Shown: positions 377 to 30,630 of the stretch, piece after piece | Layout of the letters: each line of letters opens with the position of its first letter | Position numbering within the stretch: the first letter of the stretch is position 1 | Origin: Burkholderia sp. GAS332 | GTDB taxonomy: Bacteria; Pseudomonadota; Gammaproteobacteria; Burkholderiales; Burkholderiaceae | Assembly: GCA_900142905.1 (NCBI GenBank) | Contig: FSRV01000001.1 | Coordinates: 1,984,001-2,048,000, forward strand | Reading direction: 5' to 3' | DNA length: 64,000 bases | Notes under the pieces: generated by a model | What the model saw: only the letters and a program-made list of their open reading frames with translations | Told to the model about the DNA's origin: nothing | Database searches by the model: none | Program-made: the position numbers and the translations under genes

Positions 377-414
377 TCATTCCTGCTGCGGGTTCGCTAA
401 TTCTCCGCTCATTT
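377..414 (+). promoter_or_regulatory. 11-bp-period direct repeat (regulator box A)
   Basis: Half-sites TCATTCC (377), TAATTC (398) and TCATTT (409) share one orientation. The last two are 11 bp apart and the first is 21 bp upstream. The arrangement matches the boxes found before several small genes in this window. It precedes the truncated acyl ligase fragment, so it may be left over from a lost gene or may drive the fragment. Confidence 0.4.
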
Positions 415-508
415 TTCGAGCGCATGATGCGTCAGGTGGAATTCAAGTGTCGGGCAGCGTTGTTCGCGGATAGCCGACGCTCCTGCCCCTGCAGTTCTGA
501 ACCCTGGC

Positions 509-1534
509 GTGCCTAAAGGCAGCCATCGTTCATTTGCGGCCTATTCCGCTATGGTCGGTGAGGCGGATGCCAGGGGCAGGCGTCAACTCATCAATGGCCC
601 GCTCGCGTATCTTTCCCAAGTGCTGGTCGACAGGACCCTCATCGGCGGCGGCACGCTTGTGCTGGAGCGCTGCTACGACCCCGCGCAGACGCTCGCGACG
701 ATTGAAGCGGAACGTATCACCGATATGTTTCTGGTCGAGCCGCAGCTTTTCGAAATCATGGATCATCCGGATGTCCGCCGACGTGACCTGTCCTCACTTC
801 GGTCCCTCGCGCACATCGGCGGATCATCGCCCGCGATCCTGCGGCGACGCGCGATCGCGCGTCTGGGGCCTGTTCTCACCCATATGTATGGAGCGAGCGA
901 GGCGGGTCTCGTCAGCGCGCTGCCTGCGGCCAGCTATGGGACGGCCCCTGAACTGCTAGCCAGTGCTGGCCGCGTTCGGCCGGGCGCCGAGGTGCGCTTT
1001 CGTCTCGCCAATGGAACGCTCGCGCGGACCGGGCAGCATGGAAAAATCGAGGTAAGGTCCCGCGCTGTGGCGCAAGGGTATTACAACCAGGCAGTCGAAT
1101 CGGCTCAGAAGTTTCAGGACGGTTGGTGCCTGACGGGCGATATCGGCTTCCTCGACGAAGCCGGCAACCTGCATGTTCTCGGTCGCGCAACCGATGTCGC
1201 CGAGGTCGACGGGCGCGCGATCGGTCCCACTTCGATTGAAGAAGTTCTGTGCGAGCTTCCCGACGTTCGCTATGCAGCGGCTTTCGCGGCGAACGCTGAC
1301 GCCAATGAGCACGGATGGATCGCCGCAGTCGAGCCGTGGGACGGAAAACGGGTGGGCGTCGCGCAATGTGTGCGCGCGCTCGAAGCGGCGTTGGGCGTGT
1401 TCATCGGCAATGCCGTGCGTATCTGCGTTGTTGAGCGCCTGCCTCTTACTGAGCAAGGGAAAGTGGACCGCGCCGCGATTTCAAGTCTTGGACTGGCGCC
1501 GTGCGATATGCACTTCAGGGAACTGGCCGAATAA
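509..1534 (+). pseudogene. AMP-binding acyl ligase, 5'-truncated
   Basis: This is the C-terminal two thirds of an ANL-superfamily adenylating enzyme (acyl-CoA synthetase type). Visible motifs are an AMP-binding-loop remnant (VPKGSHRSF) at the very start, YGASEAG in the middle, TGDIGFLDEAGNLHVLGR (hinge and A8 region) and EQGKVDR near the end with the conserved adenylation Lys. About 340 residues are present, whereas such ligases usually have 480-550. The roughly 170 N-terminal residues that should precede the P-loop are absent. The frame stays open a short way upstream of the GTG at 509, but its translation there does not look like a ligase. I read it as a decayed or truncated gene. A short stand-alone protein from the GTG cannot be excluded but should be inactive. 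Confidence 0.6.
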
Positions 1535-1601
1535 CGGCAGACGCGGCAGATGAAGATGCACGAAGACAGGCAGGCTAACGCACCGGTGTCGCGCGCGCCG
1601 A

Positions 1602-2267
1602 TTACCGATTCTCCGACGTTATCGACCAGCCAAGACCCCGGACGTTCCGGATCAAGGATTGCCCGTATTTCTTTCGGATTGCATGGATCAATACATCGAC
1701 CGCGTTGCTTTCAATCTCTCTGCCCCAGCCGTACAGTCGCTCTTCCAGTTGGCTACGCGAGAGTACCGCGCCTCGACGTTCAAGCAAGGCATGCATCAAC
1801 GTGAATTCACGCGCCGACAGCGGCGACTCGATACCATTCAGGAGAAGGGTGCGCCTTTCAAGATCGAGACCAAGAAATTCGTCGCCGATTCTCGAGGTCG
1901 CATAGCCTGTCGTTCGCCGCAGCACTGCGCGAATGCGTGCAAGTAACTCACGAACAACGAATGGCTGGAGGATGCAATCGTCGGCGCCGGTATCGAGACC
2001 GCGTGCATGCGTTTCCGGATCATCGTGTGCGCTAAGGAGCACGACGGGGACCTTGTTGCCCGCCGCACGTGATGCCTTCAACAACGCTATGCCGCCAATG
2101 CGCGGAAGACTCAAATTAAGGAGCACGACCGCGTAATAGCTTGCTGCGATGGCAAGGCTGGCGGCACGGCCGTCCCGTACCCAGTCGACGGTGTATTCCG
2201 CATCTCTCAACGCGCAAAATAGACTTTGACCCGTATGCAGGTCACTTTCAGCCAGTAGGATTCTCAT
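1602..2267 (-). CDS. Atypical OmpR-family response regulator with degenerate receiver
   Basis: This 221-residue protein has an N-terminal receiver (1-115) and a C-terminal winged-helix DNA-binding domain (about 130-218). It aligns without gaps to the regulator at 32360-33034 with about 149 of 220 identities by hand count. The receiver has lost the phosphorylation chemistry: the phospho-acceptor position 51 is Asn (AAT codon), the invariant Lys101 is Gln, Asp8 of the acidic pair is Ser, Thr79 is Ser and Tyr98 is Cys. The DNA-binding domain is intact, and the recognition-helix region (ESNAVDVLIH..RKK.GQ) is almost identical to the paralogue. The ATG at 2267 is preferred because GAGAG lies just upstream; a TTG 8 codons earlier is less likely. 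It lies 88 bp downstream of the AspT-type transporter on the same strand, so co-transcription is plausible. No partner kinase is adjacent. Confidence 0.9.
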   Translation of the reverse strand: MRILLAESDLHTGQSLFCALRDAEYTVDWVRDGRAASLAIAASYYAVVLLNLSLPRIGGIALLKASRAAGNKVPVVLLSAHDDPETHARGLDTGADDCILQPFVVRELLARIRAVLRRTTGYATSRIGDEFLGLDLERRTLLLNGIESPLSAREFTLMHALLERRGAVLSRSQLEERLYGWGREIESNAVDVLIHAIRKKYGQSLIRNVRGLGWSITSENR

Positions 2268-2355
2268 TTTTCTCTCGATGTTGTGCCCCAAGCGTTCCCT
2301 TTATCGGGTTCTGAACGCCATGGGGATGAATAGCCCCGTTCCTTTTGTAAGACCG

Positions 2356-4038
2356 TCAAACGAGCTCAATGAGCAAAGGGCCCAGCAGCGCCAACAGCAC
2401 ACTGGCGATTGCATACGTGACAGCAAAGGGCACGGTAGGCACCGCGCTTTCTGACTTTTCCAGCACCTGACCGAATGCCGGATTTGCGCCACGTGAGCCG
2501 GCCAATGCACCTGCGAGCAAAGCTGAGTTGTCGTAGCGCAATACGTAGCGGCCGAATAGCATGGTTAGGAGCAGCGGGAAGAGCGCGACAAATATACCGA
2601 GCAATAAAAGGGTCATCCCGCTTTGCCGGATCGTTAAGAGTGCTTGCATCCCCGAATTGAGACCGACCGCAGCGACGAATGCAGACAAGCCGAAATCCTT
2701 TAACAGTTGCGAGGCCGCCGAAGGCATTGCCCCATACTTCGGATATTTGCCGCGTATCCAGCCAAATATCAGCCCCATCAGAAGGCAGCCCCCACCCGCA
2801 CCGAGCGTCAACGCGAAACCGCCGGCGTAGACCACGATAAGCCCTAGCAGCAGACCCAAGACCAGACCGAGTCCCATATAAACAAAGTCGGTTTTGTCCG
2901 AACTGGGCAAGTCATAGCCCGCTGTCTCGACCGCGCGCTTGGTGCTTTCAGGCGTTCCGTAGAACGTAATGACGTCACCATGCTGCAACTCTGTTTCCCA
3001 AAGGAGGGGCAGTGGCCGCTCAGCCCGCGTTATGCCGAGGATAAACACACCACGGCGAAGATCCCGGTCGAGTGCGTTGCGGGCCTCCGAGATCGTCACA
3101 CGGTTCATGTCTTTTCTGGTAAAGACCGCTTGCCGGCTCTCCATCTCGACACTGATGCCTTCTGCCTCTGCGACTTCTTCTCCGAGCAGGTCCGCGGCAA
3201 CCACCACCCACTTGCGCATGCCGACAAGCAGAACAATGTCATCCTTCTCCAGTACCACGCCCGCTGCCGGCTCGATCAGTCTGTCCTCCCGGCGAATGCG
3301 CTCGACTGTGATCAAATCCCTCTGGCTGACTTCTAGATCCGCGATCGTTTGGCCCGCAGCCGGCCCTGCTCGGTATGCACGACCGACGAGTAGCGGCATT
3401 GATGCGCTCCGGCCAGGCCGTAGCCGCATGCCGCCGTCAGCCGCGTTCTCGGCTTTGATCGCCGCGTCATGCAGACCTTCACGCATAAATCGCGGCGCGA
3501 TATTCACACAGACAAGTATCGCGCTGAGCAAGCCAGGAACGTAGGTCACAGCGAAGGCGATTGCCACTTCCGATTGCAGAAATTTGACTTCTGTCGGAGG
3601 GAGTCCAAGCCTCGAGATCGCGTCTCCGGCCGTGCCGACAATAGCCGACTGCGTCAACGCACCCGCCGCCAGACCCGCTGCGAGGCCTTTATTAAGCTGG
3701 AATAGCTTTGCGCAGGCAACCACGGTAAAGAGTGCCGACAATGCAAGGAACGCGGCGAGCGCGAACTCGCGGAGCGTCTTGCGATTGAACGACGCAAAAA
3801 ACTGCGGGCCGGATGAATACCCAACCGCGTAGATGAACACGCTCAGCATGAGCGCCTTGACCCCGCTGTCGATGGTGACACCGGCTTGACTGATGAGCAC
3901 GGCCGCGAGCAGCGTTCCTCCCACGCCGCCCAATTGGAAGGAGCCGAAATTGATGCGACCGACGTAATATCCGATCGCGAGCGAGAGGAAAAGCGCAACC
4001 TCCGGCGACCTCTGAAATAGGGTGTGTAACGCGTGCAT
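2356..4038 (-). CDS. AspT/YidE-type putative aspartate:alanine exchanger-family transporter
   Basis: This 560-residue inner-membrane protein has two blocks of about five to six transmembrane segments (residues 10-185 and 390-560) flanking a soluble region with two RCK_C/TrkA_C-like modules (about 205-375). That is the architecture of the aspartate:alanine exchanger family (AspT, YbjL, YidE). Conserved features include the GALTQSAIVGTAGDAI and GSRGANPAFGQVLEK segments, which are repeated helical hairpins of the family. The substrate cannot be told from sequence; known members exchange amino acids or are orphans. The degenerate response regulator follows on the same strand. The ATG at 4038 is weakly supported, as no strong Shine-Dalgarno is visible. 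Confidence 0.85.
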   Translation of the reverse strand: MHALHTLFQRSPEVALFLSLAIGYYVGRINFGSFQLGGVGGTLLAAVLISQAGVTIDSGVKALMLSVFIYAVGYSSGPQFFASFNRKTLREFALAAFLALSALFTVVACAKLFQLNKGLAAGLAAGALTQSAIVGTAGDAISRLGLPPTEVKFLQSEVAIAFAVTYVPGLLSAILVCVNIAPRFMREGLHDAAIKAENAADGGMRLRPGRSASMPLLVGRAYRAGPAAGQTIADLEVSQRDLITVERIRREDRLIEPAAGVVLEKDDIVLLVGMRKWVVVAADLLGEEVAEAEGISVEMESRQAVFTRKDMNRVTISEARNALDRDLRRGVFILGITRAERPLPLLWETELQHGDVITFYGTPESTKRAVETAGYDLPSSDKTDFVYMGLGLVLGLLLGLIVVYAGGFALTLGAGGGCLLMGLIFGWIRGKYPKYGAMPSAASQLLKDFGLSAFVAAVGLNSGMQALLTIRQSGMTLLLLGIFVALFPLLLTMLFGRYVLRYDNSALLAGALAGSRGANPAFGQVLEKSESAVPTVPFAVTYAIASVLLALLGPLLIELV

Positions 4039-4470
4039 TTGACCAACTTTTTAAGGGTCGCTGGCAATGTCTTGATGCCAGTTGAGGAGCAGGAAGACGG
4101 AAGCTGCGCGGGTAATGAAATCTCCACATGCGAGCAGAGCAAGGCAATCCGGCAACGCTTCTTTCGCGGCGGCATTCGATTCGCCCTGGCCGGACAGGCT
4201 GCTGTATTCAAGGCGTATGGGCCCGCTCTTCAGGATCGCCTTGTTCCATCGGATAAAAGAGCCGCGACCTGGCATCACTGTTTAAGGGCCAAATGGGCCG
4301 GCAGCGTTGAGGTGAGCGGAAATCTTTCCAGTGGAAATATTAAGTGCGATTCGTCAGCGCGTCAACATCTTTCCAATGGTAAAATTTATTCGTCGGACGA
4401 TTTCGCGGTATGGCTACACCGTGCACGTCGATGTTCAATCGGCGCTTTTCGAGGCTTCAATTGCGGCGCC
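4039..4470. other. Intergenic region with a repeated TTTCCA-N-TGG element
   Basis: No convincing gene lies in this stretch between the transporter start and the hydrolase end. Two similar elements sit 45 bp apart: TTTCCAGTGGAAA at 4325-4337 (perfect dyad) and TTTCCAATGGTAAA at 4370-4383 (imperfect). They look like tandem binding sites for an unknown regulator. They lie about 290-345 bp upstream of the AspT-type gene, which is far for a promoter element. An overlapping open frame has no recognisable protein character. Confidence 0.35.
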
Positions 4471-5427
4471 TCAGTGACGCGCAAATGAATCGATCGCATG
4501 CGCCAGCGCGACCGGGTATTGATACATCATCGCGTGTCCTGCGTGCTTAACCAGCAGCAGATGGGCATGGGGCAATAAGCGCGTGAGCGCTGCGGCGTTC
4601 TCTTTGGCGACGACGGCATCGTCGGTGCCCGACAGCACCAGCGTATCGATACGCACCGAGCGCAGCGCGCCGGGGGCTTTATCGTCCGATTCCCACGCTT
4701 TCAGCGCGGCGGTTTGACCATCCGTGACCACGCTGGAAATGGCGGGCGACGGGTAGCCGGAAGGCTTGAACATATCCTTGGCGAAACACCGTTCGGCGTC
4801 TTTCACGCTCGATGCCGGGAACAGAACGGCCATGACGTCCTTGAACGTGACGCCAGGGCCGCCCGCCAGTTTCGCCATGACGTCCGCAGGCACCGGGATG
4901 CCGGTTCGGCCTGGCGCCAAAGCGCTCATCAATACCATCTTGCCGATTGCCTGAGGCTTGTCGATCGCGAGTTGCTGCACGATCGAGCCGCCCATCGACC
5001 ATCCGACCACCGTCGCGTGCTTCAACGCCAGCATGTCGATCAATGCGGCGGTATCGCTTGCCATGTCGTCGATCGTGAAGCTCGACGCATTGGGTATCGA
5101 ACGCCCGATGCCGCGGTTGTCGAAGACGATGACATCATGATGTTTCGCGAGTTCGGCGAGGAACGTTGCGTCCCATTCGGACATTGTCGCGCGATAGCCG
5201 GTGACGAGCAGAAGCGGGCTGCCATGACCGAATCGGTAATAGGCGAGGGGGCCACGTGGCGTGTCCGCGGTCTGTTCGCGATGACCTGCATAGATGAAGG
5301 ACGTCGCGGGCGGCGCCACGCACGCCGCTTCATGCGGGTAGCTCGCGGTTCGGGCGTGAGCGGTGGTCGATAGGGCGGCACACGCCAAGGTAATCGCGAG
5401 TGCTGCGGATCTTAGCGGCGTATTCAT
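4471..5427 (-). CDS. Exported alpha/beta hydrolase
   Basis: The 318-residue protein has a signal peptide of about 25 residues (hydrophobic core followed by TTAHA), so it is probably periplasmic or secreted. The alpha/beta-hydrolase fold is shown by DNRGIGRS, the nucleophile elbow GWSMGG (Ser144), an acid candidate in LSGTDDAVV and the catalytic His in KHAGHAMM near residue 299. The substrate is unknown; relatives include esterases and haloperoxidase-like enzymes. A direct-repeat box on the minus strand (5484-5500) lies 57 bp before the ATG, which suggests control by the OmpR-type regulator family of this window. Confidence 0.85.
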   Translation of the reverse strand: MNTPLRSAALAITLACAALSTTAHARTASYPHEAACVAPPATSFIYAGHREQTADTPRGPLAYYRFGHGSPLLLVTGYRATMSEWDATFLAELAKHHDVIVFDNRGIGRSIPNASSFTIDDMASDTAALIDMLALKHATVVGWSMGGSIVQQLAIDKPQAIGKMVLMSALAPGRTGIPVPADVMAKLAGGPGVTFKDVMAVLFPASSVKDAERCFAKDMFKPSGYPSPAISSVVTDGQTAALKAWESDDKAPGALRSVRIDTLVLSGTDDAVVAKENAAALTRLLPHAHLLLVKHAGHAMMYQYPVALAHAIDSFARH

Positions 5428-5483
5428 GGGGATGCCCCTTGACTCGATGATCGTCGACGTAACACGTCAAGTGTATTGATCAA

Positions 5484-5500
5484 CTATGAGCGTCGAATGA
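5484..5500 (-). promoter_or_regulatory. 11-bp-period direct repeat (box J) before the hydrolase
   Basis: On the minus strand TCATTCGACGC is followed directly by TCATAG, two half-sites 11 bp apart in the orientation of the hydrolase gene and 57 bp before its start codon. It matches the shared box pattern of this window, with a slightly divergent second half. Confidence 0.5.
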
Positions 5501-5538
5501 GGAAGAAGGCCGTCGGCCTGGGTTCCGGGAAAGCCAAG

Positions 5539-5799
5539 TTAGTGACCGACGTAAATCGACTTCAACCCCACGTCAGCGGCGGGATTGAATTCAGCGTCTG
5601 AAAGTGTGCCCGCGCGCGTGCCCGCATGGTCGTTCGCCGGGTTGGTGTGGACCTGCGCCGGCGCGGAACCCGGACCGACAATCTCATACGCGATCGTCTC
5701 AACCTGGGTTTCGTCGACCTGCACGATCGATTGCGCGAACGCCGCAGTGGGCAAGACGAACATAGCGGCAAGTAGTGTGGAGCGAAACAGGGCGTTCAT
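5539..5799 (-). CDS. Small exported protein of unknown function
   Basis: This 86-residue protein has a clear signal peptide (MNALFRSTLLAAMFVLPTAAFA, cleavage before QSIV). The mature part of about 64 residues is polar with no cysteine and ends in GLKSIYVGH. The general form resembles the many short DUF4148-like exported proteins of Burkholderiales, but I do not see the DUF4148 core and do not assign it. AGGAGAATCACC precedes the ATG. A direct-repeat regulator box lies about 80 bp upstream (5879-5895). Confidence 0.7.
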   Translation of the reverse strand: MNALFRSTLLAAMFVLPTAAFAQSIVQVDETQVETIAYEIVGPGSAPAQVHTNPANDHAGTRAGTLSDAEFNPAADVGLKSIYVGH

Positions 5800-5878: not shown

Positions 5879-5895
5879 GAATTAGGTCAAAGTGA
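5879..5895 (-). promoter_or_regulatory. 11-bp-period direct repeat (box K) before the small exported protein
   Basis: The minus strand reads TCACTTTGACC then TAATTC, with half-sites 11 bp apart and 80 bp before the 86-residue exported protein. The second half-site matches the consensus well and the first differs by one base (TCACT). Confidence 0.5.
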
Positions 5896-6010
5896 GCATG
5901 CACGCTCATGCCACCAACACATCTACGACACCCAGCACTTCCTCCATCCCGCGAATGGAGACGCGAAATGGCCGACCTGATTCTCATCGTCATCTATTGA
6001 GTGCACCTTC

Positions 6011-6027
6011 TAATTCTCAGCTAATAG
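6011..6027 (+). promoter_or_regulatory. 11-bp-period direct repeat (box B) before the FAD monooxygenase
   Basis: TAATTCTCAGC followed by TAATAG gives two half-sites 11 bp apart, on the plus strand about 120 bp upstream of the FAD-dependent monooxygenase start. It matches the box pattern shared across this window. Confidence 0.55.
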
Positions 6028-6144
6028 ACGCGACAGACACTCTATTGCGGAAGCTCGCTTTTAATTGCCAGGACCATTGAACGCGAGTTTCACAACACGA
6101 GCTCAGCGTATAGTATTCCTGCCTTAAAGATAACGACGGTGCTT

Positions 6145-7278
6145 ATGATGAATGGAAACGTATTGATTTCCGGTGCGGGCGTCACGGGACTGGCACTGGC
6201 ATACTGGCTGGATCGCGCGGGGTTTGCTACGACGCTGATCGAGCTGGCCCCGGCATTTCGCCGGGGCGGCCAAGCCGTCGACATTCGGGGCGTCGCGCTC
6301 GATGTTGTCGAAGAGATGGGATTGCTCGAGGACGCCCGTGCGTTGCGAACGCGTCTGAAGGGCATGTCGATGCTCGACGCCGACGGCAACGAGACACAAC
6401 GCACCGAAGAACGCACCTTCAGTGCTGGCCGGCTCGACAGCGACGACATCGAAATTTTCCGCGATGACCTGTGCGAGCTTCTGATGGGCGCGATGCGCGA
6501 CCGCGTGGAATTCGTCTACGGCGACAGCATCCGCGCAATCGACGATCAGGGTGACGGCGTGGCGGCGACGTTCGCGAGCGGTGCGAACCGGAGATTCGAT
6601 CTCCTGATCGGCGCCGACGGCATCTACTCGAATGTCCGCAAGCAGTGTTTCGACGATGAATCCACGTGTGTTCACCCATTGGGCGTAGTTCTCGCCCTTT
6701 TCTCGACGCCGAACCTGATCAATCTGATCGATTGGCAACTGGGCCACCGGGAGGAGGGCGTCGGCTACGTGATCTATCCCAGCCACGACAAGAGCGAACT
6801 CCGGATTGGCGTTGGCTTCGCGGCTCCGGGATCTGCAATGTCCCGCAGCGATACGGAAGCGCAAAAGCAGCTTGTGGCCGGGCAGTGCGCTCATCTGAAG
6901 GGCGAATTTCCCCGCTTCATCAACGCAATGAAGACGACCGATCAGTTCTATTACAACGAGCTCGCGCAGATCCGCATGCCGTCATGGTCTAAAGGCCGTG
7001 TCGTGCTTGCCGGTGACGCCGCACACTGCGCATCCCCTTTCTCGGGTCAAGGCACGAGCCTCGGGCTCGTCGGTGCTTTCGTGCTGGCTTGCGAACTGGT
7101 TCGGCACTGGGATGATCCGGCGCAGGCGTTTGCTGCATACGAACACCGTATGCGACCGTATGTGGATCTGAATCAGGCTCTCGTCGATCTCACTCGTAAG
7201 GGCCCGACGCCGGATCACTTAATGACTGAAGCCAAGAACGGTATCGACCTCAGCGACTTGCTGAATAAGGCGGTATAG
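6145..7278 (+). CDS. FAD-dependent aromatic-ring-type monooxygenase
   Basis: The product is about 377 residues. It shows the three flavoprotein hydroxylase signatures: an N-terminal dinucleotide fold VLISGAGVTGLALA, the middle DG motif (LIGADGIYSNVRK) and the C-terminal GD motif (VVLAGDAAHCASPFSGQGTSLGL) that binds the FAD ribityl chain. This places it in the class A (PHBH/TetX-like) single-component monooxygenases that use NAD(P)H and O2. The substrate is unknown. ATG codons at 6145 and 6148 are both possible; a GTG at 6139 is less likely. It is a single-gene unit with a regulator box upstream and a hairpin with a T-rich tail just after the stop. Confidence 0.88.
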   Translation: MMNGNVLISGAGVTGLALAYWLDRAGFATTLIELAPAFRRGGQAVDIRGVALDVVEEMGLLEDARALRTRLKGMSMLDADGNETQRTEERTFSAGRLDSDDIEIFRDDLCELLMGAMRDRVEFVYGDSIRAIDDQGDGVAATFASGANRRFDLLIGADGIYSNVRKQCFDDESTCVHPLGVVLALFSTPNLINLIDWQLGHREEGVGYVIYPSHDKSELRIGVGFAAPGSAMSRSDTEAQKQLVAGQCAHLKGEFPRFINAMKTTDQFYYNELAQIRMPSWSKGRVVLAGDAAHCASPFSGQGTSLGLVGAFVLACELVRHWDDPAQAFAAYEHRMRPYVDLNQALVDLTRKGPTPDHLMTEAKNGIDLSDLLNKAV

Positions 7279-19828: not shown

Positions 19829-20014
19829 TCAGATGGCTGTCACCATCGCAAGCATCAAGTAGGGAAACATTTCTTCATAAGTTGCCGGCTGGTCAGCGGC
19901 CTTCTTTTCATCGCCAGCGTCGAGTGTTGCCGATTGCGTCGCCACTTCACTGAGGGAAACCTGGCCGGCGCCGATGGCGGATGAACGTGCGGGTTGGTTG
20001 AAGAGCGAGAACAT
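19829..20014 (-). CDS. Small protein of unknown function (61 aa)
   Basis: The ATG at 20014 has AAAGGA nine bases upstream. The 61-residue product (MFSLFNQPARSSAIGAGQVS...) has a polar, acidic-basic middle (DAGDEKKAADQPATYEEMFP) and a hydrophobic end (YLMLAMVTAI). No family is recognised. An in-frame start 16 codons earlier would run through the hairpin at 20036-20062 and is less likely. The gene has its own regulator box (20079-20095) 65 bp upstream and a perfect hairpin between box and start. Such dedicated signals favour a real gene. Confidence 0.6.
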   Translation of the reverse strand: MFSLFNQPARSSAIGAGQVSLSEVATQSATLDAGDEKKAADQPATYEEMFPYLMLAMVTAI

Positions 20015-20062: not shown

Positions 20063-20078
20063 CTATGTTCGCCGAAGG

Positions 20079-20095
20079 AAATGAGGGGAAAATTA
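20079..20095 (-). promoter_or_regulatory. 11-bp-period direct repeat (box I) before the 61-aa gene
   Basis: The minus strand reads TAATTTTCCCC followed by TCATTT, half-sites 11 bp apart, 65 bp before the ATG at 20014 and in the same orientation as the gene. Confidence 0.6.
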
Positions 20096-20268
20096 GCGCA
20101 GGCCGACGCGCGATCCCGCCTGATTCTGCCGTGTGTGCCTACTTGGAGCAGGCAAGTGGGTGCCGCTATGCGCGACGCTTTGCAAGGCGGCGCGTTGCCA
20201 GGCAGCGGCGGATTGAACACGGGCCAGATTTGTGCCGCCGCCTAAAAACTCAAAATAGCAGCGGTCTT

Positions 20269-21877: not shown

Positions 21878-22393
21878 TCACGGGTAGCCGTAAACGATGG
21901 CGCTCGGTGCGTACGCGACCGGAACCGTCGTATAGACGGCCGGTTGAGAAATACTGTTGCCCTTTGAGGCCATGCATTGCGCGTAGGCTGCGTTGTACTG
22001 CGCCTGCAGACCGGCCGAGGTGGCTTGCGCGCCGTTTGCACCGGCGGCACCGCCAAACAGCAGCCCCACGCCCGCACCGATCGCTGCGCCGACGCCCGCG
22101 TCGCCCGCCGCGGCGCCGAGCAGCGCGCCAGCCGCCGCTCCGCCCACGGTTCCGATCGCAGTGCTGCCGACGCCGTTCGGTATTTCGCTGTGAGCCGGTG
22201 CGGCGCGATCGTCCGAGCGGAAGGCGTAGTCCCTGCATGCGTAGTCTTCCTGCTGGAACACGCCGATCGGTTTGCCGCTTGGCGGCAATGCGACGATGGA
22301 TGGGCCAGTCGGCGGAATGACCGCGCAGCCGGTGAGCGCAATGGCGATTAAGCCCAGGGGTAAGGCGATGCGTGTGATTCTTAAGAGCTTCAT
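21878..22393 (-). CDS. Glycine-zipper outer-membrane lipoprotein
   Basis: The ATG at 22393 has GGAGGA ten bases upstream and begins a lipoprotein signal (MKLLRITRIALPLGLIAIALTGC) with a lipobox LTGC. The mature protein of about 150 residues has a run of Gly/Ala (GTVGGAAAGALLGAAAGD..., about 75-115), the glycine-zipper pattern seen in SlyB/YMGG-type envelope proteins, and a QCMASKG segment near the end. It probably sits in the outer membrane and contributes to envelope integrity. A regulator box lies 45 bp upstream on the same strand. Confidence 0.82.
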   Translation of the reverse strand: MKLLRITRIALPLGLIAIALTGCAVIPPTGPSIVALPPSGKPIGVFQQEDYACRDYAFRSDDRAAPAHSEIPNGVGSTAIGTVGGAAAGALLGAAAGDAGVGAAIGAGVGLLFGGAAGANGAQATSAGLQAQYNAAYAQCMASKGNSISQPAVYTTVPVAYAPSAIVYGYP

Positions 22394-22437
22394 GATGTTT
22401 GTGTCCTCCGATTCGATGAGGCCATCATGAACACGCA

Positions 22438-22454
22438 CAGTTAGCGTTGAATTA
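22438..22454 (-). promoter_or_regulatory. 11-bp-period direct repeat (box C) before the lipoprotein
   Basis: The minus strand reads TAATTCAACGC then TAACTG, half-sites 11 bp apart and 45 bp before the lipoprotein ATG. This places it where an activator could contact RNA polymerase. Confidence 0.6.
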
Positions 22455-22537
22455 GCTTGACGCTGGGCAAGCAGGCCTGCGGCGATGCTTTTGGCGTCGT
22501 GATAGGCTAGCCGGCCGCCGTTTTCCCGGCGTACCTC

Positions 22538-24584: not shown

Positions 24585-25739
24585 GTTAAAAAGAATAAAT
24601 CATGCAACATCCGCGCGTAGGCGACAGGCGACGGCGAGCAGCGCGCTTCGCAGCACGGGGACTTTCAGGCTCATGTGGCATAACTTTCTCCCCGGAAATA
24701 TCGATTTCCTTGTATTTGGAAAGAATAATGTATGTATTCACTGTGCTGCCGCCCGCGGATCTACGTTTGACCTTCGAGTCTCGTTGGCTTGCATAATTTT
24801 GTTCCTGCGTGGGGTTCGCCAACCCATTGATCCCCCGTGACGCTGGGAATGCTGGCATTCGGCAAACCGTTCCCGGTCATGGCGCTAGACAGAAGCGACG
24901 CAACCTACCAGCCGATCGATATCGTTAGCTTCGGCAGATCTTCGTCCGCGGGCAGGATGGCAACCGAGCTTTGATCCGCGGTATCGTCGAACCCAAATCC
25001 ATATGCGAGATGATCGATGCATGACGTCATGCCAGAATCGAGCCCATTCGTTGGCTGGCGCATGCTGATAGAAACTCGAGGCGTTTAGCCAATCTGGGGG
25101 CTCAGTGGCAACATGCCGATTGATCGCACCGGCCAGAATTGCGCCAAAAGCGTTCGCGTCAGTCCCTCTGGGTTGGAGCACGCCATTGTTGGTCAACACA
25201 TCGCATGTTCCCGGCTTGGCCATGTTGAATACCGGACCGCCATTGATCGAACCCGAAGGAGCTGCCGAACGAATAGGACGACCAATCCGATCGGCCGCAT
25301 CGATCAAACAGGTTAGCAATTCTATGTAATCGCCGGCTCAGGTGTCATGGTCGCGGCGGGCAATAGTTTGCTGGCGTTCGACTACGTTCCCTGGAGCGCG
25401 AGCGCACGCGGCGCGGGCATCGATCGTGTTGTAGCGTTCGCGAGATGACCCTTCCTACGAGCCGGGCAGAACCGTATTCACTGTGCACGTTCGTGTTCTG
25501 GGGCATATTGCACCCCACGACGCGTACCCATCGCATTCTTGCAGATCAGGTGGTCACCTTCGTGCGCCCATTTTCCTGTGACAGGTCCACTCAAATCTTG
25601 AGTGATGCCGGGCACGCGGGACGTGCGCGCTTTCGTGAATGATTTGAGAAAGAATGAACTCGAGCCGAAGCTAATTGAAATCTAATTCAAGGACAGTACA
25701 TTGAACTCTCGAACCATTCATAACCGTTGCGGAGAGTCC
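24575..25739. other. Long region without a recognisable gene
   Basis: About 1.1 kb holds no frame I can assign. Its left part (24550-24730) is more AT-rich than the surroundings. A minus-strand frame at 24885-25319 (about 144 codons, with the fragment NNGVLQPRGTDANAFGAILAG) has some protein-like composition but no start signal and no family I recognise; it may be a decayed gene. The right end carries box E for the next small gene. Confidence 0.35.
25672..25688 (+). promoter_or_regulatory. 11-bp-period direct repeat (box E) before the 68-aa gene
   Basis: TAATTGAAATC followed by TAATTC contains two matching half-sites 11 bp apart, 52 bp before the ATG at 25740. This is among the best matches in the window. 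Confidence 0.65.
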
Positions 25740-25946
25740 ATGATGCTAGACCTGTTTCAGCGAGCCAACTTGATCGATGCGACGAGCCGCGGAATTAGCG
25801 AGATCAATCGAACCATACAAAGGTTGAAGAGAGAGTGTCCGCAGGCCTTTCATACGAAAGAAACGTTGGCCTCACGGATGTTCTATCACAGACCGCCAGA
25901 GCACACGCCGTGCGGTGGCTTTGTCGATGGGCGGATGAACGATTGA
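25740..25946 (+). CDS. Small protein of unknown function (68 aa)
   Basis: GGAGAG lies five bases before ATG-ATG at 25740. The product (MMLDLFQRANLIDATSRGISEINRTIQRLKREC...) is helical at the start, has a basic middle and ends in PCGGFVDGRMND. No signal peptide, membrane segment or known family is seen. The strong ribosome-binding site and well-placed regulator box support a real gene of the same regulon as the other small proteins here. Confidence 0.6.
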   Translation: MMLDLFQRANLIDATSRGISEINRTIQRLKRECPQAFHTKETLASRMFYHRPPEHTPCGGFVDGRMND

Positions 25947-25988
25947 GTACTGCTTTAGGGTTTCCCATCCAGCAGGTGGGTGTCCATC

Positions 25989-26710: not shown

Positions 26711-26761
26711 CGCCGTTTCGTCACGGAAGCGCGAGGGACATGGGGGGAGAGGTGCCTCAAG

Positions 26762-27523
26762 TCATCGCCCCATGAACTTGAGCGCATCCATCATGGGCGT
26801 ATTCGACGCATTCACCATGCCCTGAAATGGCGTGTCGAGATCGAGGACAACGTACACAGCTGTCGTGGCCGATACTGCGCAAAGAAGAAACACGACGCAC
26901 ATGCTCCAGTTTCTTGGCGCACTGAAGCCGAATATGCCGAATATGACGGTCAGCCAGCCAACCAGCACGGCAATGAGGGGAGCGGGAATCGAGCCTCTTC
27001 TGTGTTCGAGTGCGAGCCATCGACCCGCGAATATGTCGTCCCAAAGTTGCATCGCATGGTCACGAAGTTTGTCCTGCGCGGGGCCGACGGTCTGCAAGGC
27101 GAAAATGCGTCCCTGGATGTCATAGGTACCACTGAGGATTTCTCGCGACTCTGCCTCTGCAGTCGTTCCCGTTTTGTTGGAGAACAGGAAGGAGATCCAT
27201 CGGGCATAGTCGTTCTTGATGTCGGCGCGTAGGCCATCGGCCGATGGGCCAAACTGGGACAACGTTCGGTCCAATTGGATCATGGCGACACTATTGTGTT
27301 GGAGCGCGCTGTTGACCAGGTCAAGCGAAGATTTTCCGGAAGAAATCAGCAGGCTCAGCACTAAGGCCGAAAGCGTTGCCACCAGACCAACGGCAATTCG
27401 CATCGCGGCAAGCGAGTCTTCCGAGAAATGGTGATCGGCGAGGCGTGCGCGCACATGCGATCCAAGCGCTGCACTCGCCAGAATGAGCACAAGCACAACG
27501 GCGGAAAAGACATAGTGACCCAT
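26762..27523 (-). CDS. DUF4239-family membrane protein
   Basis: The product has 253 residues. It has an N-terminal transmembrane segment (YVFSAVVLVLILASAALG), a second at about 45-65 (AVGLVATLSALVLSLLISS), a soluble central part (about 70-180) and two C-terminal segments (LIAVLVGWLTVIFGIFGFSA and VVFLLCAVSATTAVYVVLDL). The pattern, including LVLSLLISSGKSSLD near residue 60 and LDTPFQGM near the end, matches DUF4239, a bestrophin-like family of unknown function. It probably began an operon with the now broken FUSC gene. Confidence 0.8.
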   Translation of the reverse strand: MGHYVFSAVVLVLILASAALGSHVRARLADHHFSEDSLAAMRIAVGLVATLSALVLSLLISSGKSSLDLVNSALQHNSVAMIQLDRTLSQFGPSADGLRADIKNDYARWISFLFSNKTGTTAEAESREILSGTYDIQGRIFALQTVGPAQDKLRDHAMQLWDDIFAGRWLALEHRRGSIPAPLIAVLVGWLTVIFGIFGFSAPRNWSMCVVFLLCAVSATTAVYVVLDLDTPFQGMVNASNTPMMDALKFMGR

Positions 27524-27616
27524 GTTGAGCCGGCCTCGTTCGATTGCGCGGGTGATGACGCTGACGTCGACCCATCCTGGCAGCTATGGCGCAGATTATA
27601 GGGCTGGAGGCCCAAG

Positions 27617-27644
27617 AGGCCACGCGTTTTCGAGCGCGTGGCCT
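27617..27644. repeat. Perfect 10-bp-stem hairpin in an intergenic gap
   Basis: AGGCCACGCG and CGCGTGGCCT pair perfectly around TTTTCGAG. It lies about 125 bp beyond the end of the TerB-like gene and upstream of DUF4239 on the minus strand. No T-tract follows, so a terminator role is only possible. Confidence 0.35.
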
Positions 27645-27767
27645 GGTGGATTCGAATGGGTGGCTAAGCCGGGGTGGCGGGCGGCCGCCTCCGGCCGGAG
27701 CGCGTTTTCGTCATCCCGCCCGGGGTAAAGAAGATGCGCCTCTCAAGCGACACGGCCGGCCCTTCAG

Positions 27768-28217
27768 TCATTGCACTCGATGCCCGCGCGCGAGCCTGAT
27801 CAGATCGCGTGGACGCGCCCGATCGGCTTGCTCCGGCACTTTCCACGCAGCGCGCAACAGGTAAAGAAATCTGGCTTCTCCTTCGGAGATATGCCTGTCC
27901 GCATGAATGGCTTCCTTGCACAGCCAGATGACGTCGCGCCGGGTTTGCCAGTCCTGCACGTCGGCCGCGAGTTGCTCGACGATGACGGGATCGAGGCTGC
28001 ACGCGTCGCCCCAATTCAGATAGGCGGCGGCAGTCAGATCTTCGCACAGCGTCTGCACGACGGCCAGAAACTGACGCGGGCGCAACGACAATCGCTGTTC
28101 GATGCCGTGGCGATCGAGCGCTTCGATCTCGTCCGCTCCTACGTGTCCGTCCGACAGCAAGCAGGCCGCGACGATACGTGCGGCGGCTTCAGGACTGTCG
28201 CATTGATAGTGACGCAT
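27768..28217 (-). CDS. TerB-like (tellurite resistance-type) domain protein
   Basis: The ATG at 28217 follows AAGGAGAACCAAC. The 149-residue product (MRHYQCDSPEAAARIVAACLLSDGHVGADEIEALDRHGIEQRLS...) is all helical, with two acidic motifs, LLSDGHVGADEIEAL (about 20-34) and IHADRHISEGEARFLYLL (about 113-130). These are the paired metal-binding-like helices of the TerB fold. Function is unknown; many members sit in stress or envelope contexts. It lies 26 bp after the DUF3563 gene and is probably co-transcribed with it. Confidence 0.75.
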   Translation of the reverse strand: MRHYQCDSPEAAARIVAACLLSDGHVGADEIEALDRHGIEQRLSLRPRQFLAVVQTLCEDLTAAAYLNWGDACSLDPVIVEQLAADVQDWQTRRDVIWLCKEAIHADRHISEGEARFLYLLRAAWKVPEQADRARPRDLIRLARGHRVQ

Positions 28218-28243
28218 GTTGGTTCTCCTTATCCGTTGATCGT

Positions 28244-28477
28244 TCACAGTTCGTTGTCGCGCGGCATCACGCTCGAATGCAGACTGAACGGATAGAAGCC
28301 CCGATCGAGATGGCGCATGCGGCGTTCGAGATCCACGAGATCGGACGATGACGCCAGATACGCTTCGCGTTGTTCGAAGTGAGAAGGCGGGAACAACGAC
28401 GCCAGATACCCATTGCGTTCGTCGTGGCGAGAAGACGAGAACAACGCTCCCAGTTTTTCGAAAAGTGCGGCAAACAT
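28244..28477 (-). CDS. DUF3563 family small protein
   Basis: This 77-residue protein follows AAGGAGCACATC. Its pattern MFAALFEKLGALF...REAYLASSSDLVDLERRMRHLDR matches DUF3563, a short family common in Burkholderia of unknown function. There is an internal near-repeat of E/N-x-YLASLF and EAYLASSS, suggesting a duplicated helix. It is the first gene of a pair with the TerB-like protein. Box H (28623-28639) lies 146 bp upstream on the same strand. Confidence 0.8.
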   Translation of the reverse strand: MFAALFEKLGALFSSSRHDERNGYLASLFPPSHFEQREAYLASSSDLVDLERRMRHLDRGFYPFSLHSSVMPRDNEL

Positions 28478-28622
28478 GATGTGCTCCTTGGGTGGCGCGA
28501 CGCATGTCGGGCCGGCGGTCCGTATCGTCGCTTCAGTCCGATGCGTGCCGAACGCGCTTTTCGCGTCTGACTGGTGGTTCGAATCTGAACCTGTGCATCG
28601 ACGAACGGATCGTAGGCGCCGT

Positions 28623-28639
28623 GAATTAGGCGGAAATGA
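28623..28639 (-). promoter_or_regulatory. 11-bp-period direct repeat (box H) before DUF3563-terB
   Basis: The minus strand reads TCATTTCCGCC then TAATTC, half-sites 11 bp apart, oriented toward the DUF3563 gene 146 bp away. It lies 71 bp from box F, which faces the opposite way. Confidence 0.6.
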
Positions 28640-28709
28640 GGAGCGTGCGCGGCACGCCGAAAATGATTCACGCCGAGATCAAGCGCCTGTTTCATACAGG
28701 CAGGGCCGC

Positions 28710-28723
28710 TCATTCTTTCCTAA
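28710..28723 (+). promoter_or_regulatory. 11-bp-period direct repeat (box F), split by the IS element
   Basis: TCATTCTTTCC is followed by TAA and then the IS. After the IS the duplicated CTAA continues as CTAACTCTC, so the uninterrupted box would have read TCATT-N6-TAACT with 11-bp spacing. It would have lain about 80 bp before the Pro/Tyr-rich exported protein. Confidence 0.55.
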
Positions 28724-30204
28724 TCTTACTGTGTCACGTATTTTTCGTGCCACCGTTGCGATGAATGGTGCAGACGTTGCGTTAGTCGCAGTCCGAGCAG
28801 GATACGCAACGTCGTGATGGAGTCAGGAACGTGGCGTTGTGCGCGCTGGACTGCCGCGTGCGATGTAATCCGCGGGAAGCGCAGGCAGCGTGCGTTCGAT
28901 GAAGTTTTTTTTATCGCCGCTGCCTGATCCCATCCTGAGTCTCTGGGCCATCAGAAACCCATATGCGGCAATACTCAGCGTGGCGTGGTGGTGAAAGCCA
29001 CGCCAGCCGCGACCTTCGTAGTGACCCAGTCCGAATTCCTGCTTCAGATCCTGATAGTCGCGCTCGATGCGCCAGCGCATCTTGGTTACCGATACAAGCT
29101 GTTCAAGTGTCGCCTCCCCCGGAGCGGTACTGAGAAAGTACTTGAGCGGCTCTTTATCTCCCTCGGGCCATTCGATGAGTAGCCACTCTTCCTCGCGCTG
29201 GGTAGTGCGCCAATAGTCCTGATGAGCGGGACGAACCCGCACGGCGGCAAAGCGCGAGGAGAGTGCCGCGTTGCTGCCTTCCCGCCAGGTGACGGTCTGC
29301 CAGGTGTTCGCAGGTAATTGCATGGCCAGCGCCTTGACCGCCTGCGGTTCGTGGCCGGGTGCGCGACGCAGCAGTGTCGGTGCGTTGCCACGCCCATTCC
29401 AGGGCTTGGGCGCGAGCGGCGCCGTACCCGGTGCCCATACTGAGGTGCCCGGACGGATCCCCACGGCGTATAACAAACCCAGTTCGCTTATCCCTTCCCG
29501 AAAGGCCGTTTCATCACCATATCCTGCATCGGCCAGCACGATACCCGGCACAATCCCGGATGCAATCGCTTCGCGCAGTTGGGTCAGCGCAATCTGTGGC
29601 TTCGTTGCGAAGGCCTGATCGTCAGGAATGCCGGCGCGACGGGCACGTTCCCGATCGTCAATCCACTCCCTGGGAACATACAGTTGCCAGGCGATAGGCA
29701 GGCTGCCGCGTTGCGTTGCGATCGATAAACTCACTGCGACCTGACAGTTGTCCTGTTTGCCGAGTTGGCCACAGTACTGACGTGCAACGCCCACCGAATG
29801 GCGACCCTTCTTTGGAAAGCCTGTGTCGTCAATAATCCAGTAGTAGCCGGCCTCTTCAGCGGCATGCGCGCCTAGCACCGGCATCACCCATTCGCGCACC
29901 CGTCGCATGATCGCCTTGTCGGACCATTCGGCCTTGGCAACAAAATGGTGGAGCGACTGATGCTTCGCACTGGCATGAAGCGGATCAATATGCGCAGCCA
30001 TCGGCTCGACGCTCTTCCTTGACAGTGGCATCACCAGACCGGAACAGTAGCCTTTAAGGCCGGCGTGGCGATTAGCGTGCCCTAACTCCTGTGCCAGATG
30101 GTCGAGATACGCGTCAAATTCATCGAGATCGTTTGCCATTCCGATACCCCGTAGTCGCTATTACTTCATACTACCAGGTATCGCTTTTAGCTGACACAGT
30201 AAGA
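28724..30204. mobile_element. IS701-family insertion sequence, complete, with 4-bp target duplication
   Basis: The element is 1481 bp. The ends share a 13-bp terminal inverted repeat TCTTACTGTGTCA. It is flanked by direct repeats CTAA at 28720-28723 and 30205-30208, in keeping with the YTAR-type targets known for IS701. One transposase gene fills most of it and is intact, so the copy looks recent. It separates the DUF3563/terB pair from the Pro/Tyr-rich exported protein gene. Confidence 0.9.
28823..30139 (-). CDS. IS701-family DDE transposase
   Basis: The 438-residue transposase carries the DDE triad: WIIDDTGFPKKG (Asp at about 104-105), IVLADAGYGD (second Asp) and WRIERDYQDLKQEFGLGHYEGRGW (Glu near residue 350). 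The N-terminal region (about 1-95) is the helical DNA-binding part and the C-terminus ends with a short basic tail. There are no frameshifts or internal stops. It is the only gene of the element at 28724-30204. Confidence 0.93.
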   Translation of the reverse strand: MANDLDEFDAYLDHLAQELGHANRHAGLKGYCSGLVMPLSRKSVEPMAAHIDPLHASAKHQSLHHFVAKAEWSDKAIMRRVREWVMPVLGAHAAEEAGYYWIIDDTGFPKKGRHSVGVARQYCGQLGKQDNCQVAVSLSIATQRGSLPIAWQLYVPREWIDDRERARRAGIPDDQAFATKPQIALTQLREAIASGIVPGIVLADAGYGDETAFREGISELGLLYAVGIRPGTSVWAPGTAPLAPKPWNGRGNAPTLLRRAPGHEPQAVKALAMQLPANTWQTVTWREGSNAALSSRFAAVRVRPAHQDYWRTTQREEEWLLIEWPEGDKEPLKYFLSTAPGEATLEQLVSVTKMRWRIERDYQDLKQEFGLGHYEGRGWRGFHHHATLSIAAYGFLMAQRLRMGSGSGDKKNFIERTLPALPADYIARGSPARTTPRS

Positions 30205-30278
30205 CTAACTCTCAACGACCAGAATGCACGTCATCCGATGCAGCCAATTCGCTGCGCCGAAGGTCAAGGAGAAAAAAC

Positions 30279-30569
30279 ATGAAAGGGATTCGCCAGGTGG
30301 TAGTCGCCGCCGCATTAAGCGTCGGCCTCGTGAGTGTTGCCGAGGCGCATGTGTTCGTCGGTGTCGGCATCGGGCTGCCGGTGATGCCGGTGGCGCCAAT
30401 CGTGGCAGCGGTGCCTGTTGCGCCCGTACCGATCTATGCACCGCCGCCTGCGCCCGTGTATTACGCGCCGCCACCTCCCGTGTATGTGCCGCCCGTGGTC
30501 GTGGGTTATTACGGACACCCGTACTGGGGGTACCGGCACTACGGATATGGATATGCCTACTGGCGCTAG
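30279..30569 (+). CDS. Small Pro/Tyr/Val-rich exported protein
   Basis: Strong AAGGAG lies before the ATG. The 96-residue product has a signal peptide (MKGIRQVVVAAALSVGLVSVAEA). The mature part is low-complexity: a Val/Pro-rich part (PVMPVAPIVAAVPVAPVPIY), then repeats of the type YAPPPAPVYYAPPPPVYVPP, and a Tyr/Gly/His/Trp tail (GYYGHPYWGYRHYGYG). Such proteins are widespread in Burkholderiales and probably associate with the envelope, but no function is known. The native upstream control box has been split by the IS, so expression may now be altered. Confidence 0.75.
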   Translation: MKGIRQVVVAAALSVGLVSVAEAHVFVGVGIGLPVMPVAPIVAAVPVAPVPIYAPPPAPVYYAPPPPVYVPPVVVGYYGHPYWGYRHYGYGYAYWR

Positions 30570-30613
30570 TGCAGGACCCTGCGCCAACGGCTGAATCACG
30601 TCCAGACGGCACC

Positions 30614-30630
30614 TCATTCTTTGCTAATTC
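30614..30630 (+). promoter_or_regulatory. 11-bp-period direct repeat (box G) before the sensor kinase
   Basis: TCATTCTTTGC followed by TAATTC is a near-perfect box with 11-bp spacing on the plus strand, 168 bp before the kinase ATG. It suggests that the two-component system regulates itself. Confidence 0.65.

What the first reader, a model, noticed from the sequence alone, without database searches (positions are those of the whole stretch)
377..30630. A regulon marked by 11-bp-period direct repeats before small exported and stress-type genes
Pairs of T(A/C)A(T/C)T half-sites in one orientation with 11-bp spacing occur at 398, 5484 (minus), 5879 (minus), 6011, 20079 (minus), 22438 (minus), 22538, 25672, 28623 (minus), 28710 and 30614. 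In most cases the box faces a gene 45-170 bp away: an exported hydrolase, an 86-aa exported protein, an FAD monooxygenase, a 61-aa protein, a glycine-zipper lipoprotein, a 68-aa protein, DUF3563-terB, a Pro/Tyr-rich exported protein and the sensor kinase itself. The geometry is that of PmrA/QseB-type boxes (two hexamers, 11-bp period). The nearby two-component system is the natural regulator, and envelope stress is a plausible signal.
Basis: partly seen in the sequence, partly recalled or inferred. Interest (0 to 1): 0.85.

Follow-up and report, generated by a model that had tools for sequence, protein, structure and literature searches.

The report
Stress regulon with a rigid promoter box
A bacterium of the Burkholderia group appears to switch on a set of small envelope and stress genes through one rigid DNA switch that, in related genomes, is found mostly where the neighbouring sensor-regulator pair is present; near it lies a close relative of the regulator that has lost the site through which such proteins are normally controlled.

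Summary
All 11 sites exist: 5 match CTMATTN5CTMATT exactly, 6 have one mismatch, all are intergenic. In the 10.4-Mb genome 5 of 6 exact and 11 of 32 one-mismatch matches lie in this 30-kb span; outside it the count is at control level. The box is half of a rigid promoter: a -10-like hexamer (xAxxxT) starts exactly 9 bp downstream at 9 of 11 window sites and at 38 of 38 exact boxes around orthologous kinases. One failing site is split by an insertion sequence; its empty site has the -10 in place. Among 144 genomes of the genus, 63 of 64 with the kinase carry the composite, against 7 of 80 without. Best reading: an uncharacterised PmrA/QseB-like two-component system activating -35-less promoters; binding and activation are inferred, and the signal is unknown. 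Also found: RR2 (1605-2267), 69% identical to the cognate regulator RR1, has lost its phosphoacceptor (D51N). In its family Asp was replaced by N, K, G, A, E or S, with at least three label changes forced by well-supported branches, while residues expected to read DNA stayed fixed. RR2 may read the same boxes without phosphorylation; that is inference.

The parts
397..428 (+). exact box 397-413, 9-bp gap, -10-like CATGAT 423-428, before an N-terminally truncated AMP-ligase ORF
   Evidence: relatives' ligases of 515-541 aa have their own boxes, of which L034 was run through Pfam (AMP-binding)
509..1534 (+). AMP-binding ligase fragment (341 aa, N-terminal part missing)
   Evidence: Pfam PF00501 positions 208-384 of 384 only; 63-69% identical to relatives' ligases
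1605..2267 (-). RR2: orphan OmpR-type regulator, 69% identical to RR1, phosphoacceptor D51 replaced by N; recognition helix kept
2356..4038 (-). AspT-type permease, upstream of RR2 on the same strand; the pair is also found in Caballeronia udeis (L007)
   Evidence: Pfam PF06826 and TrkA_C; synteny
5470..5501 (-). box (1 mismatch) 5485-5501 with -10-like TACACT
4471..5427 (-). exported alpha/beta hydrolase, target
   Evidence: Pfam PF00561; box upstream of relatives in L012 and L042
5865..5896 (-). box (1 mismatch) 5880-5896 with -10-like TACCAT
   Evidence: box before the orthologue in L065
5539..5799 (-). 86-aa exported protein, target; 31-37% identical relatives sit just before the kinase in other genomes
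   Evidence: no Pfam or NCBIfam hit
6010..6041 (+). box (1 mismatch) 6010-6026 with -10-like GACACT
6139..7278 (+). FAD-binding monooxygenase, target
   Evidence: Pfam PF01494
20065..20096 (-). exact box 20080-20096 with -10-like GAACAT
   Evidence: identical 32-bp composite in G111
19829..20014 (-). 61-aa protein, target
   Evidence: relatives behind boxes in L012 and L067, 40-43% identical
22424..22455 (-). box (1 mismatch) 22439-22455 with -10-like CATGAT
21878..22393 (-). glycine-zipper lipoprotein-like protein, target
   Evidence: Pfam PF13436
22537..22553 (+). box (1 mismatch) without a -10-like hexamer at the standard distance; probably not functional
25671..25702 (+). exact box 25671-25687 with -10-like TACATT
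   Evidence: composite differing at one base in G111
25740..25946 (+). 68-aa protein, target
   Evidence: relative behind a box in L012, 48% identical
28609..28640 (-). exact box 28624-28640 with -10-like TACGAT
   Evidence: similar composites before DUF3563 in relatives
28244..28477 (-). DUF3563 protein, target
   Evidence: Pfam PF12086
27768..28217 (-). 149-aa 'terB-like' ORF (label not confirmed by Pfam or NCBIfam), same strand as and just downstream of DUF3563
   Evidence: found next to DUF3563 in relatives and near the second kinase clade
28709..28723 (+). left part of the box of the Pro/Tyr-rich gene, cut by an insertion sequence
28724..30204 (.). insertion sequence, 1481 bp, DDE_5 transposase 28823-30139 (-), target duplication CTAA
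30205..30225 (+). right part of the split box, 9-bp gap, -10-like CAGAAT; in L007-L009, L011 and others, without the insertion, CAGAAT or CAGGAT stands here
30279..30569 (+). Pro/Tyr-rich exported protein, 96 aa, former target
   Evidence: no Pfam or NCBIfam hit
30613..30644 (+). exact box 30613-30629 with -10-like TACAGT, before the kinase
   Evidence: similar composites in relatives
30801..32111 (+). sensor histidine kinase
   Evidence: Pfam HisKA and HATPase_c; orthologues
32360..33034 (+). RR1: cognate OmpR/PhoB-type regulator, PmrA/QseB-like, D51 intact

Best explanation
The sites are activator boxes of a two-component system that I found no description of. The kinase (30801-32111) phosphorylates RR1 (32360-33034). 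An RR1 dimer binds head-to-tail to CTMATT-N5-CTMATT. The box lies at a fixed 9 bp upstream of a TACGAT-like -10, so it covers about -38 to -22 and takes the place of a -35 element; RNA polymerase then depends on bound RR1. Targets are small exported or envelope proteins, DUF3563, a hydrolase, a monooxygenase and the kinase itself (autoregulation). In this genome the exact composites all lie within 30 kb, while in several relatives they are spread over replicons. RR2 (1605-2267), an Asp-less paralogue with the same DNA-reading residues, probably binds the same boxes independently of phosphorylation and sets basal output or competes with RR1. Shown by sequence: the composite promoter, its recurrence in relatives, its co-occurrence with the kinase, the RR2 substitution and the constraint on RR2. 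Inferred: phosphotransfer, binding, activation, signal, and RR2's targets and sign.
For: Enrichment: 5 of 6 exact genome-wide matches in the window, backward control 0. Fixed -10: 9 of 11 window sites at offset 9, at most 2 of 11 at any other offset from 0 to 29; in the 22 loci L007-L028, fetched by kinase and not by pattern, 38 of 38 exact and 32 of 35 one-mismatch boxes at offset 9, backward control 0 and 1. Co-occurrence: 63 of 64 kinase-bearing against 7 of 80 kinase-less genomes, Fisher 1.5e-31. More distant kinases (34-38% identical) are present in 19 of the 20 same-genus genomes that lack a close kinase, so such kinases do not explain the boxes. Autoregulation: boxes before the kinase operon and before RR1 in relatives. 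RR1's best solved relatives are BasR/PmrA; four of the six base-contacting residues named for Klebsiella PmrA (N188, V192, H195, R210; passages of PMC4660055) are the same in RR1. Insertion: the empty site reads box, 9 bp, CAGAAT, as in relatives without the insertion. RR2: dN/dS 0.135 against C. udeis; contact positions 187, 188, 192 and 195 as in RR1 in 64 of 64 Asp-less rows and 210 in 63 of 64; all 6 genomes of the 144 in which I saw an Asp-less copy (G000, G099, G103, G130, G131, G139) also have the kinase and composites.
Against: No binding or expression data. Co-occurrence counts are not corrected for shared ancestry. G007 has the kinase (68% identity) but no exact composite; 7 kinase-less genomes have one or two, among them G111 with one composite identical and one nearly identical to window sites. 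3 of 22 kinase loci (L020, L024, L026) have no exact box, nor does L070 with its 53% kinase. In the own genome 4 composites with one mismatch lie outside the window, and with up to 2 mismatches there are 49 hits against 28 for the control, so weak dispersed targets cannot be told from noise. RR1 has no box (up to 2 mismatches) upstream of it in this window. PmrA's T187 and N196 are Ser in RR1. For RR2: nothing shows that it binds these boxes; 3 of the 6 loci with an Asp-less copy fetched (L081, L082, L085) show no box within their 9-10 kb; and the A-type copies evolve faster (dN/dS 0.197) than RR1 of the same two genomes (0.034).
Confidence: 0.85

Rival explanations
1. The boxes are read mainly by RR2-type paralogues or by another regulator, and the kinase/RR1 pair merely travels with them.
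For: RR2 has the same contact residues and lies at the cluster edge; RR2-type genes (with intact Asp) stand near box-bearing AMP-ligase genes in six fetched loci. G111 has two composites without the kinase.
Against: In the 59-genome set a second RR copy at 60% or more identity to RR2 was found only in G000 and G031, while 14 of 15 genomes with the kinase at 40% identity or more have two or more composites. Boxes stand directly before the kinase operon and, in several relatives, before RR1.
Confidence: 0.1
2. RR2 is a decaying duplicate without function.
For: Its phosphoacceptor, second acidic residue, T79 and (in this genome) K101 are all changed; the neighbouring AMP-ligase is truncated; A-type relatives evolve faster than RR1 of the same genomes.
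Against: dN/dS 0.135 over the gene and 0.113 in the receiver against C. udeis, where the gene is 94% identical and also N51; 0.09 between an N and a K member, with synonymous sites near saturation; contact residues unchanged in nearly all Asp-less rows.
Confidence: 0.12
3. The pattern is a chance or compositional feature of intergenic DNA.
For: One-mismatch matches outside the window are at chance level.
Against: Backward control 0, fixed -10 offset, recurrence before related genes in other species and kinase co-occurrence.
Confidence: 0.01

Closest known systems
PmrAB (BasRS) of enterobacteria and the PmrA box
   Same: OmpR/PhoB-type regulator, best match of RR1 among solved structures and best NCBIfam model for RR1; two head-to-tail hexamers, 5-bp spacer; contact residues N188, V192, H195, R210 (abstract and passages of PMC4660055 and PMC3973317)
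   Different: Half-sites are CTMATT, not CTTAAT/CCTAAG or CTTAAG; residues 187, 193 and 196 differ; RR1 and the kinase are below the PmrA and PmrB cut-offs; none of the targets run through Pfam is a recognised lipid A modification gene
QseBC
   Same: QseC is the best NCBIfam model for the kinase, QseB the second best for RR1
   Different: Both below the cut-offs. Kinases 34-38% identical to this one, which I take for QseC-like without having typed them, are present in 17 of 18 same-genus genomes without composites
BesRS of Burkholderia thailandensis
   Same: Envelope-stress two-component regulon in the same family of bacteria (abstract, passages and sections 5 and 7 of PMC9426598)
   Different: RstA-like regulator; box built on TGCG repeats, just upstream of a -35
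CmrR/CmrT of Clostridioides difficile
   Same: Phosphorylatable OmpR-type regulator together with a pseudo-receiver regulator (abstract of PMC12548384)
   Different: Encoded together as cmrRST; here RR2 is a 69% identical orphan paralogue encoded apart from RR1, in a family that holds both Asp and several Asp-less states
Aspartate-less receivers / pseudo-receivers (RitR, ChxR)
   Same: Loss of the phosphoacceptor with a DNA-binding domain kept (passages of PMC4395418 and PMC12632262)
   Different: Here the Asp-less member coexists with a close phosphorylatable relative whose contact residues it shares

Membership tests
PmrA (BasR) regulators | NCBIfam NF007928 cut-off 330 bits | tested here: not met
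   RR1 209.8 bits
PmrA (BasR) regulators | two head-to-tail hexamers with a 5-bp spacer | tested here: met
   box description in passages of PMC3973317
PmrA (BasR) regulators | half-sites CTTAAT/CTTAAG | tested here: not met
   consensus CTMATT at both halves
PmrA (BasR) regulators | lipid A modification targets | tested here: inconclusive
   none among the box-bearing genes run through Pfam; no complete target list
QseB/QseC | NCBIfam cut-offs 345 (QseB) and 475 (QseC) bits | tested here: not met
   201.6 and 207.9 bits
OmpR/PhoB response regulators (RR1) | receiver plus Trans_reg_C domain, with D51 and the acidic pair | tested here: met
Aspartate-less (pseudo-receiver) regulators (RR2) | receiver domain without the phosphoacceptor Asp | tested here: met
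   Pfam receiver hit; D51N, D8S, T79S, K101Q
Aspartate-less (pseudo-receiver) regulators (RR2) | phosphorylation-independent dimerisation and DNA binding | not testable with these tools
   needs biochemistry
BesRS | TGCG-type box just upstream of a -35 | tested here: not met
   box sequence differs and lies at the -35 place

The most novel reading that the evidence does not exclude
The regulon is read by two regulators of common descent: RR1, switched by phosphorylation, and an orphan paralogue RR2 from a family in which the phosphoacceptor was replaced in several lineages (Asp to N, K, G, A, E) while the DNA-reading residues stayed fixed. RR2 would be a phosphorylation-blind competitor or basal activator at the same rigid promoters, which makes the family a natural series for asking what a receiver does once phosphorylation is gone.
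Probability: 0.45. Interest if true: 0.75.

Novelty: new variant of a known kind. Interest (0 to 1): 0.6.

Why it matters
It points to a large activator regulon across Paraburkholderia and Caballeronia, undescribed in the searches named here, with a promoter code strict enough to predict targets from sequence: 38 of 38 exact boxes around orthologous kinases had the -10-like hexamer at one spacing. It attaches genes of unknown function (DUF3563, DUF6622, short exported proteins) to one signal pathway. The RR2 family offers close Asp-bearing and Asp-less relatives for a direct test of how pseudo-receivers work, whose activation a 2025 paper calls a mystery (abstract passage of PMC12632262).

Tried and rejected
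Considered and rejected: a QseC-like system as the source of the boxes (kinases 34-38% identical occur in 17 of 18 same-genus genomes without composites); BesR (different box); chance (controls). The hit at C2:557159 is the only exact box outside the window and has no -10-like hexamer, so I treat it as chance. A match on the + strand at 2263-2279 (2 mismatches) overlaps the RR2 start codon and points the other way; not counted. Weak dispersed boxes in the own genome could not be separated from background: with one mismatch to the composite 13 hits, 9 in the window and 4 outside; with two, 49 against 28 for the control. No structure prediction was run; it would not decide binding. Literature: no paper holds the word DUF3563 (and with Burkholderia); a word search for the half-sites gave 71 papers, of which I saw the 10 listed titles, none on this system.

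Limits and biases. The RR tree was built from the 120 listed of 968 homologues, minus truncated P0010, plus 15 locus proteins and one outgroup (135 rows); the query was Asp-less, so the 64 of 135 Asp-less share is not an estimate for the family, and a few locus rows repeat listed proteins. A change of the Asp label on that tree can be a loss or a regain. In one search the downstream gene of each box was chosen by a simple score and is uncertain for several rows. Sites with one mismatch and no -10 were left out of the listings (outside the window), but not of the counts. In one search I fetched surroundings for 18 chosen places of the 54 rows. The gene list behind the intergenic fraction was made by hand. 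The 8 composites of G020 include two pairs that look like one place counted twice at the ends of a contig, so the mean per genome is slightly high. The listing of places was cut; the per-genome counts were complete.
Full report
Check of the observation. The 11 sites were located and scored. Five are exact matches to CTMATTN5CTMATT and six have one mismatch. In the whole genome (three contigs, 10,416,547 bp, window at C1:1984001-2048000) the exact pattern occurs 6 times, 5 of them here; read backwards it occurs 0 times. With one mismatch allowed there are 32 matches, 11 of them here, against 24 for the backward control. Thus outside the window the pattern is background, and inside it is enriched with P about 1e-20. 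All 11 sites are intergenic although 17% of the span is, by a hand-made gene list.

A composite promoter. Aligning the 11 sites on the box shows a -10-like hexamer, xAxxxT, starting exactly 9 bp after the box in 9 of 11; at any other offset from 0 to 29 at most 2 of 11 fit. The test was repeated on loci chosen by kinase homology and not by the pattern (22 loci, L007-L028, 425,457 bp): 38 of 38 exact boxes and 32 of 35 one-mismatch boxes have the hexamer at offset 9, and at most 6 at any other offset from 0 to 23; the backward control found 0 exact and 1 one-mismatch match. Three of the 22 loci (L020, L024, L026) have no exact box. The consensus over the 70 composites reads roughly CTCATTYTYCGCTMATTCT-N7-TACGATG. 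If the hexamer is the -10 element, the box covers about -38 to -22 and takes the -35 place. That fits promoters that need a bound activator; activation itself is inferred.

The two exceptions. Site 28709 is cut by an insertion sequence of 1481 bp (28724-30204, DDE_5 transposase, 4-bp duplication CTAA). Joining the flanks gives box, 9 bp, CAGAAT, ahead of the Pro/Tyr-rich exported gene at 30279; relatives without the insertion, such as L007, L008, L009 and L011, have CAGAAT or CAGGAT at that place. Site 22537 has no such hexamer, and its 83-aa ORF matches only pieces of amidohydrolase-type models, far below cut-off.

Which regulator. The exact composite was searched in 59 genomes (20 positive, backward control 0) and in 144 genomes of the genus (70 positive; my sum of the per-genome counts is 263 matches against 4 for the backward control). 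The kinase was searched in the same sets. In the first set 14 of 15 genomes with a kinase at 40% identity or more have two or more composites, and 0 of 44 others have more than one. In the second set, of 64 genomes with a kinase at E of 1e-85 or better, 63 have the composite; of 80 without, 7 have it. The exception with kinase is G007. The exceptions without are G083, G024, G029, G017 and G152 (one match each) and G111 and G157 (two each). The two sets share genomes. Kinases fall in two groups: 34 genomes with close orthologues (65% identity or more) have a mean of 5.7 composites, and 30 with more distant ones (40-53%) have 2.0. In three loci of the second group (L069, L071, L072) two boxes lie within about 3 kb of the kinase; in L069, where Pfam was run, the downstream genes are TerC and a zinc-ribbon protein. 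Another locus of that group, L070, shows no box. None of these counts is corrected for common descent. Relatives have a box before the kinase operon, often followed by a short exported protein gene; I saw no such ORF between 30629 and 30801 here. Several relatives also have a box before RR1; this window has none up to two mismatches. Best curated models: PmrA then QseB for RR1, QseC then others including PmrB for the kinase, all below their cut-offs; the best solved relatives of RR1 are BasR/PmrA.

Targets. In the window: exported alpha/beta hydrolase, 86-aa exported protein, FAD monooxygenase, 61-aa and 68-aa proteins, glycine-zipper protein, DUF3563 with a 149-aa partner, the kinase, formerly the Pro/Tyr-rich protein, and a truncated AMP-ligase. 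Downstream of boxes in relatives, those run through Pfam were also a universal stress protein, another glycine-zipper protein, DUF6622, a LysR-type regulator, a 2OG oxygenase and a full-length AMP-ligase. Box-bearing relatives of window targets lie elsewhere in some genomes: the hydrolase of G001 about 2 Mb from the kinase on the same contig, the 86-aa gene of G031 on another contig. In this genome the exact composites are all in 30 kb; with one mismatch 9 of 13 are. What is sensed is not known; envelope or general stress is a guess from the gene list.

The Asp-less twin. RR2 (1605-2267, minus strand, with an AspT-type permease gene upstream on the same strand) is 69% identical to RR1. Its position 51 is Asn; D8, T79 and K101 are changed too. 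C. udeis has the same pair permease-RR2 beside its kinase, 94% identical and also N51. In a tree of 135 rows the RR2-type clade (111 rows, support 100/100) holds Asp (47), N (39), K (12), G (6), A (3), E (3) and S (1), while all 24 rows outside it keep Asp; starred branches force at least 3 changes of the Asp label, losses or regains. dN/dS is 0.135 for RR2 against C. udeis (0.113 receiver, 0.156 DNA-binding domain), 0.09 between an N and a K member (dS 1.4, near saturation) and 0.197 for the A members of two Burkholderia; RR1 pairs gave 0.034-0.129, and RR1 of those two Burkholderia 0.034. So RR2 is under purifying selection, in the A lineage a weaker one than RR1. Positions that contact bases in Klebsiella PmrA (passages of PMC4660055) are the same as in RR1 in 64 of 64 (187, 188, 192, 195) and 63 of 64 (210) Asp-less rows; position 196 varies. 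Among the 18 stretches fetched, six carry an Asp-less copy: three have one-mismatch boxes nearby (L080, L087, L089) and three have none (L081, L082, L085). Their five genomes (G099, G103, G130, G131, G139) and G000 all have the kinase and composites. I infer that RR2 is functional and probably reads the same or a very similar box. Whether it helps or hinders RR1 cannot be told from sequence.

Comparison. The box geometry is known from PmrA (abstract and passages of PMC3973317); the half-site sequence, the targets and the curated-model scores differ. A canonical regulator paired with a pseudo-receiver regulator is known from CmrR/CmrT (abstract of PMC12548384), and Asp-less receivers are a known class (passages of PMC4395418 and PMC12632262). 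I found no description of this regulon in the searches; these cover an open-licence library only, and of longer result lists I saw only the listed rows.

Noticed in passing
1605-2267 (-): Orphan regulator RR2, paralogue of RR1 with D51N; in its family the phosphoacceptor was replaced in several lineages while contact residues stayed fixed.
   Followed up: yes
28724-30204: Insertion sequence inside an activator box, separating it from its -10 and gene.
   Followed up: yes
L069 4914-6425, L071, L072: A second kinase clade has two boxes near the kinase; in L069 they precede a TerC protein and a zinc-ribbon protein, with a terB-like ORF (44% identical) nearby in all three.
   Followed up: partly
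G111:C87:51924-53693: Two composites, one identical to window 20065-20096 and one differing at one base from 25671-25702, in a genome without a detected kinase.
   Followed up: no
G018:C29, G013:C46, G074:C16, G103:C273: One identical composite (CTCATTAGAGTCTCATT..) recurs in four genomes; in G018 it lies about 1 kb from a more distant (36% identical) kinase.
   Followed up: no
L083, L086, L091, L092, L073, L095: RR2-type genes with intact Asp lie a few kb from box-bearing AMP-ligase genes; some of these loci also have boxes before a 67-aa ORF or before an exported protein of about 110 aa.
   Followed up: partly
509-1534 (+): AMP-ligase ORF lacks its N-terminal part although the promoter composite upstream is intact.
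   Followed up: partly
L007 12707-13369 (-): RR1 of C. udeis is more diverged from the window's RR1 (dS 0.88) than its kinase or RR2 are (dS about 0.24), so it may be a different copy.
   Followed up: no
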